Positions 101 to 62,955 of a stretch of 64,000 bases of DNA are shown here, piece by piece. The stretch comes from Nitratireductor sp. (GTDB lineage: Bacteria; Pseudomonadota; Alphaproteobacteria; Rhizobiales; Rhizobiaceae). The notes under the pieces were generated by a model. The model had not been told where the DNA came from. It saw only the letters and a list, made by a program, of their open reading frames with translations, and searched no databases. The DNA lies in the NCBI RefSeq assembly GCF_017794765.1, contig NZ_CP051236.1, positions 2,497,547 through 2,561,546 on the forward strand, written 5' to 3'. How positions within the stretch are numbered: the first letter of the stretch is position 1; each line of letters starts with the position of its first letter. The translations under genes were made by a program, and so were the position numbers.

Positions 101-136
101 ACGAAGGGCGCCGCGTGACAACGCGGCGCCCTTCGT
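101..136 (+). terminator. Intrinsic-type hairpin after tsf
   Basis: A perfect 15-bp inverted repeat (101-115 with 122-136, six-base loop) rich in GC. No T tract follows, so it may be a partial terminator, an RNA-stability hairpin or a processing element between tsf and pyrH. Confidence 0.65.
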
Positions 137-55786: not shown

Positions 55787-55824
55787 TGGCTGCCCTGAGG
55801 CAGCGAATGGGTGAAAGACCAAAA

Positions 55825-56073
55825 ATGGCGGAACGAACTCAAAACCTGCAGGACCTGTTCCTGAATACCGTTCGCAAGAGCAAGAACCCTCTGACGATCT
55901 TCCTCATCAACGGTGTCAAACTGACAGGCATTGTTACTTCATTTGATAATTTCTGCGTGCTCCTGCGCCGCGACGGACATTCGCAGCTTGTCTACAAGCA
56001 TGCGATCTCGACGATCATGCCGAGCCAGCCCGTTCAGCTTTACGACGCCGAGGAAAGCAATCGGGACTCCTGA
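55825..56073 (+). CDS. hfq: RNA chaperone Hfq
   Basis: Hexameric Sm-like protein that pairs sRNAs with mRNAs. The 82-residue product has [20 protein letters not shown] and the Sm2 motif [17 protein letters not shown] 55825 gives the standard MAERTQNLQ start; an in-frame ATG at 55807, with its own GAGG, would add six residues. Directly joined to hflX with no gap. Its presence is relevant to the sRNA candidates in this window. Confidence 0.97.
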
Positions 56074-57450
56074 TTGACCGAAAAACGCAAGCCAGACGAA
56101 GCAGCGCGCGACGGCGATCGGTCGACTTTTGGTCCCGACTCCACGCGAGCCGCCGTCATCACGCCTGTCCTCCCGTCGGAGCGCCGTGCCACCGAGAGTG
56201 GTGCGGCTTCTTCGCGCGCGTCTGAAGCACGCCATGAAGAGGCGATCGGTCTTACGGAAGCGATCGACCTCGATGTGGTTTTTGCCGAGATCGTGAGTGT
56301 GCACACACCTCGGCCTGCGACATTGCTCGGCACGGGCAAACTGGAAGAGATCGCTGCGCGGGTGGAAGAGCAGGCGGTGGAAGTGGTGATCATCGATCAT
56401 CCACTCACACCGGTCCAGCAGCGCAACCTCGAAAAGGCGCTCAAGGCCAAGGTTTTGGACAGAACGGGGCTGATCCTGGAGATTTTCGGGCGCCGCGCGC
56501 GTACCAAGGAAGGACGGCTTCAGGTCGATCTGGCCCATCTGGAATATCAACGCGGCCGCCTGGTCCGCAGCTGGACCCACCTGGAGCGGCAGCGCGGCGG
56601 CGGCGGCTTCATGGGTGGTCCGGGTGAGACACAGATCGAAGCGGACAGACGCCAGCTCCAGGAGCGCATCATGCGCCTGAAGAAGGATCTGGAACAGGTC
56701 CGGCGCACGCGCGATCTGCATCGTGCAAAACGAAGGAAGGTACCGTTCCCCATCGTTGCCATCGTCGGCTACACCAATGCTGGCAAGTCGACGCTGTTCA
56801 ACCGGCTCACCGGGGCAAGCGTGATGGCAGAAGACATGCTCTTTGCCACGCTGGATCCTACCCTTCGCCGGGTACAGCTTCCTCACGGCACGACGGTTAT
56901 TCTTTCGGACACGGTCGGCTTCATCTCCGATCTGCCGACCCATCTTGTCGCTGCGTTCCGCGCAACGCTGGAAGAGGTGATCGAAGCGGATCTGATCGTA
57001 CATCTCCGGGATATCGCTGATCCCGATACGGCAGCTCAGGCTATGGATGTCGAGGCCATTCTCGGCGACCTGGGTGTGGACGCCGCGGACCGGACACGCG
57101 TTCTGGAGGTCTGGAACAAGATTGACAGGCTTGATCCGGAACGACGCCGGGCCCTGTTGGAGGGTATGCGCGCCGACGACGCCCCGCTGGCAATCTCCGC
57201 GATCACGGGAGAGGGCATTCCCGATCTCCTGGCGTTGATCGAGGAGCATATTTCCGGACAGATTGTCTTGACCTCGATCGATCTTGCACCGGAACGGATG
57301 TCACTCCTGGACTGGGTCTATCGCAATGGTGACGTCGTCGAGCGCACGAACAATGACGATGGAAGCATCTCACTGAAAGTACGGATGACGGAAGCGGCAA
57401 AGCAGGACATGCAGGAGCAGCTTTCCGGAAACAAGCCCTCCCGGCATTAG
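56074..57450 (+). CDS. hflX: Ribosome-associated GTPase HflX
   Basis: GTPase that binds and splits stalled 50S/70S ribosomes. The 458-residue protein has an N-terminal HflX domain (about 40-200, GTGKLEEIA), a coiled segment with FMGGPGETQIEADRR, and the G domain with G1 GYTNAGKSTLFN, G3 DTVGF and NKID. Starts at TTG 56074 right after the hfq stop; a later start is possible but would still keep the HflX domain. Confidence 0.94.
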   Translation: MTEKRKPDEAARDGDRSTFGPDSTRAAVITPVLPSERRATESGAASSRASEARHEEAIGLTEAIDLDVVFAEIVSVHTPRPATLLGTGKLEEIAARVEEQAVEVVIIDHPLTPVQQRNLEKALKAKVLDRTGLILEIFGRRARTKEGRLQVDLAHLEYQRGRLVRSWTHLERQRGGGGFMGGPGETQIEADRRQLQERIMRLKKDLEQVRRTRDLHRAKRRKVPFPIVAIVGYTNAGKSTLFNRLTGASVMAEDMLFATLDPTLRRVQLPHGTTVILSDTVGFISDLPTHLVAAFRATLEEVIEADLIVHLRDIADPDTAAQAMDVEAILGDLGVDAADRTRVLEVWNKIDRLDPERRRALLEGMRADDAPLAISAITGEGIPDLLALIEEHISGQIVLTSIDLAPERMSLLDWVYRNGDVVERTNNDDGSISLKVRMTEAAKQDMQEQLSGNKPSRH

Positions 57451-57485
57451 ATGCGTCAACGCGTGGTAGCCCTGGTGCTTTAACG

Positions 57486-57506
57486 GCAGCCCCTTCAGCG
57501 GGCTGC
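57486..57506. terminator. Hairpin between hflX and mazG
   Basis: GCAGCCC (57486-57492), seven-base loop, GGGCTGC (57500-57506), overlapping the mazG stop codon. It separates two convergent genes; no long T tract on either side. Confidence 0.5.
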
Positions 57507-58316
57507 AGTCTTAGCGCGCTGCCAAAGCGTTTCCATTTCCTGCAGCTCCGCCTCCTCCAGTGAACGCCCGGCATTTTTGAGTTCACTTTCCACAAAGTCG
57601 AAGCGCTTGCGGAACTTGTCATTTGTGTGGGCGAGGGCGGCTTCCGCATCATAACCCAGATGGCGTCCCAGATTGACCACGGCAAACAGAAGATCACCAT
57701 ACTCCTCTGCCGCGTGAGCGTCATCCTGCTCCTTCAGGGCTTCACGCAGCTCACCGATCTCCTCCTCGATCTTGTCGAGGACCGGACCGTTCTCGCCCCA
57801 GTCAAAACCGACGCGGGCGGCGCGTTGTTGAAGTTTGTGAGCACGCATAAGGGCGGGCAGGGCACGTGGGACATCATCCAGATAGGCCGCAGACTCCTCA
57901 GGGTTGCCATTCTGCAAACGCCGCGCAACACGCTCGGCCTTTTCCTGTGCCTTGATCTCATTCCACATGCCTTTCGCCATCCCGCGGCTCCGCGCCTCGG
58001 CATCACCGAACACGTGGGGGTGACGACGGATCATCTTGCGGGTGATCGCCTCGACCACATCCCCGAAATCGAAATGACCTTCTTCCTCTGCCATGCGTGC
58101 GTGGAATACGACCTGCAACAGAAGGTCCCCCAGTTCCTCGCGCAGGTCGTCTAGATCATTGCGTTCGATCGCGTCAGCGACCTCGTAGGCCTCCTCGATC
58201 GTGTAGGGTGCGATGGAAGCGAAGTCCTGCTCCACGTCCCACGGACAACCGGTCTGTGGGGTGCGAAGTGCTTTCATGATTTCGAGGAGTCTTGCGATAT
58301 CCCTTGAGGGCTGCAT
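57495..58316 (-). CDS. mazG: Nucleoside triphosphate pyrophosphohydrolase MazG
   Basis: Hydrolyses (d)NTPs to monophosphates, cleaning up damaged or excess nucleotides. The 273-residue product has two MazG domains: TGCPWDVEQDFASIAPYTIE with EELGDLLLQVVFHA (Mg-binding Glu/Asp) in the first, and EEIGELREAL with EEYGDLLFAVVNLGRHLG in the second. ATG 58316 gives the usual MQPSRDIARLLEIM start; the frame is open 33 codons upstream. Confidence 0.95.
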   Translation of the reverse strand: MQPSRDIARLLEIMKALRTPQTGCPWDVEQDFASIAPYTIEEAYEVADAIERNDLDDLREELGDLLLQVVFHARMAEEEGHFDFGDVVEAITRKMIRRHPHVFGDAEARSRGMAKGMWNEIKAQEKAERVARRLQNGNPEESAAYLDDVPRALPALMRAHKLQQRAARVGFDWGENGPVLDKIEEEIGELREALKEQDDAHAAEEYGDLLFAVVNLGRHLGYDAEAALAHTNDKFRKRFDFVESELKNAGRSLEEAELQEMETLWQRAKTAAR

Positions 58317-58434
58317 CTTGTGTTCCCGTATTCTGAGCATTCCGTTTATCGTTGACACGCGAAAACGCTCCGACTGACTGTTGTTGCGCATTCGGCATGA
58401 AAAATTGACGTCCATCCCCTGGAATTGCCCCGCC

Positions 58435-60100: not shown

Positions 60101-60364
60101 ATGCTTACACGCACAATCAGGTACACAGTTCGGTTTCAGGGGAGTTTTCTTCTGGGTGGCTTCGATCAGCAATTGCCGGCTGGCGAATATCAGGTTGAAC
60201 GAGACGAAGAGATTATAGAGGGGTTGTCCTGGCTCGCTTGGCGAGGTGTATCGACCTTTATTCACCTGCCGGCTGTCGGCACGGAAACCCTCAAAAGCCA
60301 GATGAAGCAGATCGACCCCAGAGAACTCGAAGATGCGCTCGATAGAGATCGGAAACTGTCATGA
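60101..60364 (+). CDS. Conserved small protein of unknown function
   Basis: An 87-residue protein opening MLTRTIRYTVRFQGSF with a beta-rich first half (PAGEYQVERDEEIIEGLSW) and an acidic, Asp-rich C-terminal end (IDPRELEDALDRDR). The sequence resembles small hypothetical proteins widespread in Mesorhizobium and Bradyrhizobium that I recognise by style only. TAGGGA precedes the ATG. Overlaps the next gene by four bases (ATGA), so the two are translated together. No membrane segment or catalytic motif. Confidence 0.7.
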   Translation: MLTRTIRYTVRFQGSFLLGGFDQQLPAGEYQVERDEEIIEGLSWLAWRGVSTFIHLPAVGTETLKSQMKQIDPRELEDALDRDRKLS

Positions 60365-60594: not shown

Positions 60595-60664
60595 TCGCGC
60601 GGTTTCATTCGGGCAATGGCTGGCATGGGTATGGCTCACACCTCTCGCAACGAAAGATGGAATG

Positions 60665-60922
60665 ATGGTGCTGGATTTTCCAAACAAGGCCAGAAGCTAT
60701 GACAGAAACAGACGATGCGTCCGCTTCCTCGGGTATGATGGATTGTTTGAAGTATCTTTTTTTGTTCAGGCCAACGCACTCGTCTCGACAGAGAACGGGA
60801 TAAACGAGGGTGAACTTCTACAGGTCTTTGATGGCGCTCGTGGGACTGTCTACGATGCTGCCAGAAAGGTTTACGCACGCGGTCGCCAAGCGGCATACCT
60901 GGTCACCGCGAAGGACTTCTGA
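60665..60922 (+). CDS. DUF1488 family protein
   Basis: An 85-residue protein with the DUF1488 pattern: FPNKARSYDRNRRCVRFLGY, then GLFEVSFFVQANAL, and the close VYARGRQAAYLVTAKDF. Function of the family is unknown; it is common as one or more small copies in rhizobia. ATGs at 60662 and 60665. Convergent with the next gene across 13 bases. Confidence 0.8.
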   Translation: MVLDFPNKARSYDRNRRCVRFLGYDGLFEVSFFVQANALVSTENGINEGELLQVFDGARGTVYDAARKVYARGRQAAYLVTAKDF

Positions 60923-60935
60923 ACCACGTGGTGGG

Positions 60936-61274
60936 TCAATGTCGGATTGTTTTCCCGCTCAGCATTTTCAGCGCAGCGGCGCCAAGGGAACGCGGACTGC
61001 GCCACACCGACGTCCTCATCGACTTCCCGGTAAGACCGACTGGTCTCTTCTGTCGTTGATTGTTCCGGATCATGAGGTCTGTTGCGACGATGCGCGACAG
61101 GCCAATCGCAGGAACTTCTGCCTGCAGGGCAGGGACGCCGGTGAAGACGTGATAGACTGTCCAGGTGCCGTCGACCTCGATACGCCGCCCGTATTGAGTG
61201 GTCTCTACCTCTTGGGAACCGGCCGGAGTTAGCCGTGGCAGACAATTTTGTTCAATGCCCGGATCAACATGCAT
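60936..61274 (-). CDS. Conserved hypothetical protein
   Basis: A 112-residue product opening MHVDPGIEQNCLPRL with the segment TQYGRRIEVDGTWTVYHVFTG, which I recall from small rhizobial proteins of unknown function. The rest is Arg/Lys rich and does not look conserved, so the true C-terminus or frame may differ. The open frame reaches 61319; ATG 61274 was chosen for the more protein-like start. No ribosome site of note. Confidence 0.55.
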   Translation of the reverse strand: MHVDPGIEQNCLPRLTPAGSQEVETTQYGRRIEVDGTWTVYHVFTGVPALQAEVPAIGLSRIVATDLMIRNNQRQKRPVGLTGKSMRTSVWRSPRSLGAAALKMLSGKTIRH

Positions 61275-61344
61275 CTCGGATATCCTGTTGCGCGAGAGAC
61301 TGAAGCGCCGGCGCGCCACGTGGCACCGCCGTCTGATCCTGAGT

Positions 61345-61458
61345 TTACCAAGTAATGCTGATCAGAACGATGTATGCGAACCATGCACAAATCGAGATCA
61401 TGATGCCGATGGCAACGAACCACGCCGTCTCTGATAGGATAAGGTGAATTGTTTTCAT
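61345..61458 (-). CDS. Predicted 37-residue membrane peptide
   Basis: Reads MKTIHLILSETAWFVAIGIM followed by 17 more hydrophobic residues ending ISITW. Almost the whole chain from residue 12 to 36 is a membrane helix, with a short polar head, typical of small inner-membrane peptides. No strong ribosome site precedes the ATG. A perfect 10-bp hairpin lies 47-70 bases upstream. It is too short for most gene finders. Confidence 0.45.
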   Translation of the reverse strand: MKTIHLILSETAWFVAIGIMISICAWFAYIVLISITW

Positions 61459-61504
61459 GAATTACGATGCGCCTGTTTCGCGCAAAAGTCGAGCTACAAG
61501 ATTT

Positions 61505-61528
61505 TTTTCTTGCCATCCGGCAAGAAAA
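61505..61528. repeat. Perfect 10-bp inverted repeat
   Basis: TTTTCTTGCC (61505-61514), four-base loop, GGCAAGAAAA (61519-61528). Could be a leader hairpin of the 37-residue peptide mRNA (minus strand), or part of a plus-strand transcript ending at 61706. Confidence 0.7.
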
Positions 61529-61683
61529 GGCCCATACGGTTCCAATCAGATGCTGGTCTGGTGCGGAACGTCCTGCAAGATGTGCGGTGAGGTTCTCCGG
61601 TGAACGGCTCTGGATTTGACCTGCAAGACTGTGTGGTGACCATGAAGGTACCGGCACCCGCGTAAGTCTCAGGAACGAAGGGA

Positions 61684-61706
61684 AGCGGGCTCTGGCCCGC
61701 TTTTTT
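61684..61706 (+). terminator. Strong intrinsic terminator without an assigned gene
   Basis: AGCGGGC (61684-61690), TCTG loop, GCCCGCT (61695-61701) ending in T6. Orientation is plus, and the only plus-strand content upstream to 61460 is non-coding or very short frames. It abuts the 3' end of the convergent gene at 61712. Confidence 0.8.
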
Positions 61707-61711
61707 GTTGC

Positions 61712-62128
61712 CTAGCGTGCACTGTCCTTGATCGCCGCGAGCTCAGCGGCAATCCGTGCCCGCTTCAGGCGCTCGGTTTTCTCACGACGCTCCGTGTCTT
61801 CATGCTGCAGGATTTTCCTGGCATTGGTGTTCGTCTCTTCAGCCCGCCGTTCCGATATCGATTGCCTGGCAGGGAGGGCCGAGACGGATTTCATTTTTCG
61901 CTTTTCCGGGCGCCGTAGGCCTGCTGTTCCTTCCGGCGGCGCTTCAGGTAGCCGGGAAGGGGGACCGTCACGTTGACCACTCTCCGGTAATCGGTTCCCA
62001 TTGGCATCAAATCGCTGGCGCGCCGCGCTCATCCATTTATCGCGGAGATCCCAACTCTCGTCGGCCCAACTGCGTCCATTGCTGTCAGTGTAGAGCTTGC
62101 GGGCCAGATTTTCGAGATCAGAAGTCAT
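61712..62128 (-). CDS. Hypothetical charged protein
   Basis: A 138-residue protein, MTSDLENLARKLYTDSNGRS onward, with a polar, low-complexity middle (Pro, Glu, Arg) and a helical, Arg/Glu/Ala-rich C-terminus that is likely coiled-coil. No family recognised and no signal peptide. The N-terminal 35 residues look most protein-like (ARKLYTDSNGRSWADESWDL). No clear ribosome site. Confidence 0.5.
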   Translation of the reverse strand: MTSDLENLARKLYTDSNGRSWADESWDLRDKWMSAARQRFDANGNRLPESGQRDGPPSRLPEAPPEGTAGLRRPEKRKMKSVSALPARQSISERRAEETNTNARKILQHEDTERREKTERLKRARIAAELAAIKDSAR

Positions 62129-62376
62129 TGACCAGCATAGGCACTGTCAGCCGATAATTGCCAACCATTTCTTTCGTAATCCGGCTGAGAACGAGTGGGC
62201 CTTGAATAAGCCATACTCCGGGCACAATCTCGCCTGATCGTTATTAGGGCCTGGCTTGGCTTCGGGCGGCGTCAACCAAACTCGACCCGCCATTCTCGTT
62301 CCTGAAATCGATATTTGTTGCGTCCTGCTGATTGCGGGGCGTGTTCTTCTGGTCGAGATTATAAAGGATCGCCACC

Positions 62377-62583
62377 ATGCCAACGGGCAAAGTAAAATTC
62401 TTCAATGGTCAAAAAGGCTTTGGTTTCATCGAGCGCGACGATGGTGAGAGCGACGTATTCGTTCACATCAGCGCACTGGACCGGGCTGGACTGGGAGGCC
62501 TGGTTGAAGGTCAGTCCCTGACGTTTGATCTTGAGCAGGACAATCGCGGACGCGCGTCTGCTGCAAATCTGCAGGTAAACTGA
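62377..62583 (+). CDS. Cold-shock-domain protein (CspA family)
   Basis: A 68-residue OB-fold nucleic-acid-binding protein with RNP1-like KGFGFIERDDG and RNP2-like DVFVHISAL. Such proteins melt RNA structure in the cold or in stationary phase. Rhizobia carry many paralogues, so no specific letter is given. AAAGGATCG precedes the ATG, and a GC-rich hairpin follows. The 248-base leader is gene-free. Confidence 0.93.
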   Translation: MPTGKVKFFNGQKGFGFIERDDGESDVFVHISALDRAGLGGLVEGQSLTFDLEQDNRGRASAANLQVN

Positions 62584-62865: not shown

Positions 62866-62955
62866 GGAGGGATGGCCGAGCGGTTGAAGGCACCGGTCTT
62901 GAAAACCGGCAGGCGGGTGACCGTCTCGTGGGTTCGAATCCCACTCCCTCCGCCA
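62866..62955 (+). tRNA. tRNA-Ser (anticodon UGA)
   Basis: A 90-base gene with acceptor stem GGAGGGA/TCCCTCC, D-arm, anticodon loop CTTGAAA giving UGA, a long variable arm as in serine tRNAs, T-loop GGTTCGAATCC, and an encoded CCA at 62953-62955. Decodes UCA and related serine codons. Confidence 0.96.

What the first reader, a model, noticed from the sequence alone, without database searches (positions are those of the whole stretch)
61345..61528. Tiny membrane peptide gene with an upstream hairpin
A 37-codon minus-strand frame encodes one clean membrane helix and is preceded by a perfect 10-bp inverted repeat. Such peptides can be toxin or regulatory peptides; the hairpin could control its mRNA. 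Gene finders would skip it.
Basis: seen in the sequence. Interest (0 to 1): 0.5.

Follow-up and report, generated by a model that had tools for sequence, protein, structure and literature searches.

The report
Membrane mini-gene beside stress RNA gene
A 37-residue gene that encodes one membrane helix is real and belongs to an unnamed family often found next to heat- and cold-stress genes, while the hairpin reported with it is part of the start signal of a neighbouring small RNA gene on the other strand.

Summary
Both features exist. The minus-strand frame 61345-61458 is a real gene: relatives match in 40 of 394 genomes of its GTDB family, and 37 of 41 copies examined have a start codon and exactly 37 codons, with purifying selection. 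Pfam and NCBIfam give only weak matches. Of 41 copies, 15 lie near cspA and 15 near groEL or its co-gene orf58. Most likely it is a stress-linked single-span membrane peptide; its action is inferred.

The 10-bp repeat (61505-61528) is not that gene's mRNA hairpin. Its left arm holds the -35 box of a plus-strand sRNA gene (about 61544-61706). The promoter stands at the same place in 12 of 12 sRNA copies, the repeat only in the window's. The sRNA occurs in 10 of 10 Nitratireductor genomes and carries the core hairpin of the alpha-r35 sRNAs, which in a wider collection lies within 600 nt 3' of cspA in 70 of 130 copies.

A toxin-antisense reading gets no support: the sRNA runs away from the peptide gene and shows no special complementarity. 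Against: only 3 of 10 Nitratireductor genomes hold the peptide gene.

The parts
61345..61458 (-). 37-codon gene for a single-span membrane peptide (family pattern M[RK]Y[LF].R...[ED]P..W, helix, LY.VL[TS]SIT[YFW])
61459..61510 (-). upstream block of the peptide gene, similar to the block upstream of its closest relative (Nitratireductor G009, L004); holds a short CAAGA-A6-TCTTG inverted repeat (CAAAGA-A4-TCTTTG in G009, read by eye)
   Evidence: pairwise alignment; sequences
61505..61528 (.). the reported 10-bp perfect inverted repeat; overlaps -35 box and spacer of the plus-strand sRNA promoter; not conserved as a repeat in the 11 other sRNA copies
61509..61514 (+). -35 box CTTGCC of the sRNA promoter
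   Evidence: [CG]TTG.. with 17-nt spacer at the same distance in 12 of 12 copies (1-nt shift in one)
61532..61537 (+). -10 box CCATAC of the sRNA promoter (CCATAT in 6 of 12 copies)
61544..61706 (+). small RNA gene (start inferred from the promoter, end from the T run); Nitratireductor-type sRNA related to alpha-r35
   Evidence: Rfam ar35 19.4 bits, below gathering 45
61570..61592 (+). conserved 5' domain of the sRNA, GTCCTGCARGATRTGYGGYGAGG
61638..61655 (+). core hairpin GACCATGAAGGTACCGGC shared in form with alpha-r35 and with cspA 3' ends
61683..61706 (+). intrinsic terminator of the sRNA (GC stem, TCTG loop, T6)
   Evidence: sequence; helix 6; not listed by the consensus scan
61712..62128 (-). 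K/R-rich ORF (138 aa) convergent to the sRNA; 40 residues resemble the small gene beside cspA/ar35 in G009
62377..62583 (+). cspA-like cold-shock gene
60101..60364 (+). gene of the 'MTTRTT' type (44 of 85 residues identical to the gene divergent from groES in L116)
60662..60922 (+). DUF1488 gene
   Evidence: Pfam PF07369, E 4e-15

Best explanation
Two divergent genes share the spacer at 61459-61545. (1) Minus strand: a 37-residue, single-helix inner-membrane peptide, a diverged member of an undescribed family whose copies often sit beside cspA or groEL in stress-gene clusters. (2) Plus strand: an sRNA with a housekeeping- or RpoH-like promoter, a 5' domain seen in the genus and (by model match) in two other genomes, the alpha-r35 core hairpin and a terminator. 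The reported inverted repeat overlaps the -35/spacer of that sRNA promoter. Most likely mechanism, inferred: under temperature or other stress the peptide inserts in the inner membrane with its basic N-terminus inside and acts by binding a membrane protein or complex, using the conserved C-terminal LY.VL[TS]SIT[YFW] end. The sRNA acts separately, as a stress-induced RNA of alpha-r35 type. Shown: gene family, length conservation, selection, neighbourhood, conservation of promoter and RNA structure. Inferred: expression, topology, partner, stress induction.
For: Family: a match at E 0.001 in 40 of 394 genomes of the GTDB family, and in 2 of 199 drawn from the order, one of them the window's own. 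Of 41 copies, 37 have a start codon (33 ATG, 3 GTG, 1 TTG) and exactly 37 codons. pS/pN 0.31/0.06 and 0.28/0.05 in close pairs; window versus G009 0.67/0.29. One helix. Context: 15 of 41 with cspA within 2 kb, 12 with groEL, 3 with orf58 alone, 11 with neither. sRNA: above 100 bits in 10 of 10 genus genomes plus G057 and G059; structure 94.7% paired, 33 double-changed cells, 0 of 500 shuffles as high; promoter in 12 of 12. Genus named by nine contigs.
Against: Only 3 of 10 Nitratireductor genomes (G000, G003, G009) give a clear match for the peptide. In G008 (N. pacificus) the sRNA, the K/R-rich ORF and cspA are syntenic and no such peptide is seen upstream. G370 has stops in its copy, two G313 copies are 33 aa, and L145 keeps only the C-terminal part. 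11 of 41 copies have neither cspA nor groEL/orf58 found. Some pairs do not show selection: L120-L123 pS 0.08, pN 0.10; L134-L144 0.26/0.35; window against L132, L136, L150 pN at or above pS, with silent sites near saturation. The window copy is diverged: 51% to G009, 19-32% to the other 31, with a weak Shine-Dalgarno and no recognisable promoter (either strand). The Rfam ar35 match is below threshold. No expression data.
Confidence: 0.62

Rival explanations
1. Type I toxin-antitoxin pair: the hydrophobic peptide depolarises the membrane and the adjacent plus-strand sRNA silences its mRNA.
For: Size and hydrophobicity fit type I toxins (recalled); an sRNA gene is adjacent and divergent.
Against: The predicted sRNA does not overlap the ORF and shows no special complementarity (19 of 100 shuffles as good); the sRNA is in 10 of 10 genus genomes, the peptide gene in 3; in 25 of 41 copies the peptide gene lies downstream of orf58 or of cspA on the same strand, unlike an antisense pair; 1 weak PADLOC match among 33 members.
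Confidence: 0.08
2. The window copy is a decaying remnant: the family is real but this copy is no longer expressed.
For: High divergence, weak ribosome site, no clear promoter, patchy presence in the genus.
Against: Intact frame with exact 37-codon length; pN 0.29 against pS 0.67 versus the G009 relative; about 50 nt upstream also align with G009.
Confidence: 0.15
3. The reported hairpin controls the peptide mRNA or is an operator shared by both divergent promoters.
For: The repeat folds strongly on the minus-strand RNA and has CTTGCC on both strands; smrB35 of S. meliloti has a LysR-type inverted repeat upstream (PMC2780559, passages).
Against: As a repeat it is absent from the 11 other sRNA copies (3-6 of 10 pairs) and not seen as such upstream of the G009 peptide gene; frequency near chance.
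Confidence: 0.12
4. The peptide is a small subunit of a respiratory or transport complex, like CydX or KdpF (recalled), rather than a stress peptide.
For: Length conservation and a conserved C-terminus suggest a fixed protein partner.
Against: cspA and groEL recur beside it; no convincing Pfam, NCBIfam or PDB match. Neighbours were not screened for respiratory or transport genes, so this rival is weakly tested.
Confidence: 0.12

Closest known systems
alpha-r35 sRNA family (Rfam RF02346; founder SmrB35 of Sinorhizobium meliloti pSymB)
   Same: Core hairpin GACC(A/G)YGRAKGUACYGGC followed by an intrinsic terminator; SmrB35 carries the core GACCACGGATGTACTGGC (sequence printed; 139 bits). The window's own genome also has an ar35 copy above gathering, 3' of another cspA (L155, 47 bits).
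   Different: The window sRNA has a different 5' domain and scores 19.4 bits against a gathering score of 45.
Small single-span bacterial membrane proteins such as MgtS, KdpF, CydX (named from recall)
   Same: About 30-50 residues, one helix, no other domain.
   Different: No shared sequence family found; linked here to cspA/groEL neighbourhoods.
E. coli yobF-cspC (recalled, not tested)
   Same: A small stress protein gene next to a cold-shock gene.
   Different: Homology not tested; different arrangement.
Type I toxins (Hok, Ibs, TisB type; recalled)
   Same: Short hydrophobic peptide near an sRNA gene.
   Different: No predicted overlap or special complementarity with the sRNA; stress-gene context.

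Membership tests
Protein-coding gene family (37-aa membrane peptide) | intact homologues of the same length in other species | tested here: met
   37 of 41 copies with a start codon and exactly 37 codons; match in 40 of 394 genomes
Protein-coding gene family (37-aa membrane peptide) | synonymous changes exceed non-synonymous | tested here: met
   pooled pS 0.57, pN 0.35 over the 378 of 561 pairs with pS under 0.7; window vs G009 0.67/0.29; a few pairs go the other way
Protein-coding gene family (37-aa membrane peptide) | translated in the cell | not testable with these tools
   no expression data
alpha-r35 sRNA (RF02346) | covariance model score at or above gathering (45 bits) | tested here: not met
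   19.4 bits in the window; seven other copies of this sRNA 21.8-32 bits
alpha-r35 sRNA (RF02346) | core hairpin and terminator | tested here: met
   core 61638-61655, terminator 61683-61706
alpha-r35 sRNA (RF02346) | independent promoter in an intergenic region | tested here: met
   [CG]TTG..-N17-C[CT][AT][CT].. promoter in 12 of 12 copies; by sequence only
Type I toxin-antitoxin | antisense sRNA overlapping or pairing with the toxin mRNA | tested here: not met
   no predicted overlap; duplex energy reached by 19 of 100 shuffles
Type I toxin-antitoxin | peptide toxic on expression | not testable with these tools
   needs an experiment
CydX/KdpF-type complex subunit | match to a described small-subunit family or its operon | tested here: inconclusive
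   only weak Pfam/NCBIfam matches (best E 0.005); neighbours screened only for cspA, groEL/groES, orf58, the K/R-rich gene and MTTRTT-type genes

The most novel reading that the evidence does not exclude
One RNA hairpin with a nearly fixed 18-nt core and a covarying outer stem is a shared regulatory handle of stress genes in this family of bacteria. It lies at the 3' end of cspA mRNAs, upstream of a gene divergent from groES, and in free-standing sRNAs such as alpha-r35 and the window's. It binds one common factor, or one another through the self-complementary GUAC of its loop, and a 37-aa membrane peptide is a further product of the same stress islands.
Probability: 0.25. Interest if true: 0.72.

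Novelty: new variant of a known kind. Interest (0 to 1): 0.5.

Why it matters
It gives an unnamed membrane peptide family of nearly fixed length a place (heat- and cold-stress neighbourhoods) and a testable role. It also suggests that the alpha-r35 sRNA family is one form of a hairpin that more often ends cspA genes, which would make its function testable.

Tried and rejected
Antisense control of the peptide by the sRNA: RNA duplex test, reached by 19 of 100 Markov-type shuffles; the sRNA against the cspA, K/R-rich-ORF and cspA 3' regions of the window: 63, 45 and 23 of 100. DNA search with the ORF region alone: 25 of 100 genomes, own included, have short matches, most of them 20-35 nt in the helix-coding part; I read these as chance matches to membrane-protein coding DNA and did not check them one by one. 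Plasmid collection: no DNA match for the window stretch 60900-62400, no tblastn match for the peptide (the low-complexity filter may hide it), no match for orf58-peptide. Sigma-70 consensus scan: no promoter on either strand; it also did not list the sRNA terminator, and its one terminator-like site lies elsewhere. PDB profile search: two marginal matches, E 0.4 and 0.48. Leaderless or own-promoter readings of the minus strand: looked at by eye, nothing decisive.

Literature: searches for ar35/Smr35B/alpha-r35 names, the core letters and UTR-derived csp sRNAs. I saw no paper describing the cspA 3' position, but only open-licence PMC papers are held, I read passages of ten, and PMC7866481, PMC6337395 and PMC7717549 and PMC8844928 were seen only as listings. 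So I do not claim that it is unpublished. Passages seen: PMC2780559, PMC2573895, PMC3616915, PMC2873474, PMC3441632, PMC4167512, PMC7143759, PMC2848018, PMC5928217, PMC10117765. None was read in full.

Selection notes: the 41 peptide copies (window, and 40 in 39 fetched regions) are 41 of the 52 rows. The 11 rows not fetched had E 0.0046-0.0196 in frames of 142-449 aa; two of those places (G118, G175) became strong with the larger profile. The 33 rows of A4 were chosen at 37 codons, so its lack of gaps is by selection. The hairpin collection (130 unique) joins hits with loci fetched for other reasons, so groES-linked and peptide-linked copies are over-represented; six places were not fetched (G036 C31 and C36, G044 C28 and C47, G018 C26 and C43). 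Its core is fixed by the search pattern, so only the outer stem was free to vary.

Full report
Observation. The frame at 61345-61458 on the minus strand is an ATG frame of 37 codons, and the 10-bp perfect repeat 61505-61514/61519-61528 is there. Among 236 ORFs of 30-45 codons in the window it is the only one with a 19-residue hydropathy of 2.4 or more. Repeats of this kind appear at two distinct places in the window, and 3 of 10 shuffled windows have at least one, so the repeat alone is weak evidence.

Where the window lies. Nine contigs carrying the neighbouring sRNA are named Nitratireductor. NCBI puts that genus in the Phyllobacteriaceae. 'Family' below is the unnamed GTDB family f1 of the genome search, which by recall is the Rhizobiaceae in the broad sense.

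The peptide gene is real. A protein search of 100 relatives found one clear homologue, 51% identical over all 37 residues, in Nitratireductor G009. A profile of three members and then of 33 found matches in 40 of 394 family genomes, and in 2 of 199 genomes drawn from the order, one being the window's own. Of 41 copies extracted, 37 have a start codon (33 ATG, 3 GTG, 1 TTG) and exactly 37 codons. One (L145) keeps only the C-terminal part and has no start at that place, two in G313 have 33 codons, and one (G370) is broken by early stops. The C-terminus LY.VL[TS]SIT[YFW] is the best conserved part. Silent changes exceed replacements in most comparisons: pooled pS 0.57 and pN 0.35 over the 378 of 561 pairs with pS under 0.7; 0.31/0.06 (L116 vs L121), 0.28/0.05 (L116 vs L153) and 0.67/0.29 for window versus G009. 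Some pairs go the other way, such as L120-L123 (0.08/0.10) and L134-L144 (0.26/0.35), and the window against several distant members is saturated. AlphaFold2 gives one helix, residues 2-36, pLDDT 89. Pfam gives only weak matches (best E 0.0051, PLDc_N, in 4 of 33 members), NCBIfam E 0.07-0.08 in single members, PADLOC one at E 0.016, and the PDB E 0.4.

Neighbourhood of the peptide family. In 15 of 41 copies a cspA gene lies within 2 kb. In 13 of these an alpha-r35-like RNA was found behind cspA (L133 and the window are the exceptions) and in 11 a small K/R-rich gene; in 10 the peptide gene is downstream on the same strand and in 5 (L132, L133, L136, L153, window) it is divergent. In 12 copies groEL lies within 2 kb, followed by a 58-aa K/R-rich gene (orf58) and the peptide gene on the same strand; 3 more have orf58 without a groEL match. 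In 11 neither was found, though several of those have DUF1488-like or MTTRTT-like genes near (read by eye). The window fits: an MTTRTT-type gene at 60101-60364 (44 of 85 residues identical to the one divergent from groES), DUF1488 at 60662-60922, the peptide gene, the sRNA, a K/R-rich ORF (16 of 40 residues identical to that of G009) and cspA at 62377-62583.

The hairpin belongs to the other strand. A DNA search of the region found a 150-nt element in the window's genome (two copies) and in all nine other Nitratireductor genomes. Twelve copies were aligned. Upstream, [CG]TTG..-N17-C[CT][AT][CT].. stands at the same distance in 12 of 12 (1-nt shift in one): in the window CTTGCC 61509-61514 and CCATAC 61532-61537. 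Around that -35 box the window has 10 of 10 pairs, the 11 other copies only 3 to 6: the promoter is conserved, the repeat is not. The R. etli heat/salt RNA-seq paper gives cTTGaa-N16-CgATaT as RpoH-like and cTTGAc-N16-cnATAA for SigA (PMC4167512, passages); the promoter here could be either.

The sRNA. Its consensus structure has six helices. 94.7% of cells pair, and 33 cells changed on both sides against a shuffled mean of 13.5 (0 of 500 as high). Pairs with a double change number 12 (2 of 500 shuffles as high), while further pair types are not exceptional (55 of 500); sliding the partners destroys the pairing. It ends in a GC stem and T6 (61683-61706). A covariance model found it above 100 bits in 10 of 10 Nitratireductor genomes and in two others, G057 and G059. 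Rfam's ar35 model matches the window copy end to end but at 19.4 bits against a gathering score of 45, so I do not file it as an ar35 member; it shares ar35's core hairpin and terminator.

The shared core. The pattern GACCRYGRAKGTACYGGC occurs in 50 of 100 genomes, own included; its reversed control has two matches, in one genome. With up to two mismatches allowed to GACCACGGATGTACTGGC, 40 genomes gave 29 exact, 3 one-mismatch and 14 two-mismatch places, against 8 control matches, so the core is close to all-or-none. Of 130 collected copies 108 have exactly those letters. The core is fixed by the pattern, but the outer stem was free, and it covaries: pair -2/19 pairs in 99 of 129 copies against at most 71 in 500 shuffles. 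Of 130 copies, 70 lie within 600 nt 3' of a cspA match on the same strand, 43 of them 18-28 nt behind its end. 15 more lie upstream of an MTTRTT-type gene (13 with groES divergent), 13 have the window-type 5' domain and 32 are other (see the selection notes). The S. meliloti founder SmrB35 has the core (sequence printed) and scores 139 bits as a positive control, but no clear cspA lies within the 11 kb taken. In plasmids of Mesorhizobium terrae and Agrobacterium tumefaciens (pAt2) the hairpin follows a gene annotated as cold-shock protein; the first reaches ar35's gathering score, the second does not. SmrB35 is listed with RpoD and RpoH1/2 promoter predictions (PMC7143759, table passage), gave array signals under oxidative and salt stress (PMC2573895, passage), and gave no signal among Hfq-bound RNAs, which the authors read as absence or low affinity (PMC2848018, passage).

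Links between the two genes. In G009 the closest relative of the peptide gene is also divergent from a transcript with this hairpin (cspA-ar35, L153), and about 50 nt upstream of the ATG align between the two. Against a tight functional pair: the sRNA is in 10 of 10 genus genomes and the peptide gene clearly in 3; in N. pacificus the sRNA, K/R-rich ORF and cspA are syntenic with no such peptide; and there is no special RNA complementarity. I therefore read them as neighbours in a stress island, not as toxin and antidote.

Verdict. The function of both is inferred from context: stress. The peptide family and the position of the alpha-r35 hairpin at cspA 3' ends are the parts worth following.

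Noticed in passing
G000:C1:2264228-2264401 (L034, L091): Second copy of the window's sRNA in the same genome.
   Followed up: partly
L155:4690-4811 (G000:C1 about 1289189-1289310): An ar35 copy above gathering (47 bits) directly 3' of another cspA gene in the window's own genome.
   Followed up: yes
Upstream of groES in L116-L134, e.g. L116 about 1892-1932: The same core hairpin, by eye inside a longer inverted repeat (GGAATGAAC...GTTCGTTCC), upstream of an MTTRTT-type gene divergent from groESL.
   Followed up: partly
32 'other' loci: Core hairpin, 30 of the 32 with a T run downstream, but no cspA within 600 nt; possible further free-standing sRNAs.
   Followed up: no
L124 (G370), L128 and L130 (G313), L145 (G057): Broken, shortened (33 codons) and partial copies of the peptide gene.
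   Followed up: no
window 105-132: A second perfect inverted repeat, 12-bp arms with a 4-nt loop (from the nested hits).
   Followed up: no
window 55807-58415: ORFs that look like hfq, hflX and mazG (names from recall, no domain search run) upstream of this region.
   Followed up: no
window 62866-62955: tRNA-Ser(tga) near the stress cluster; tRNAs also lie near cspA/ar35 in L143, L148 and L149.
   Followed up: no
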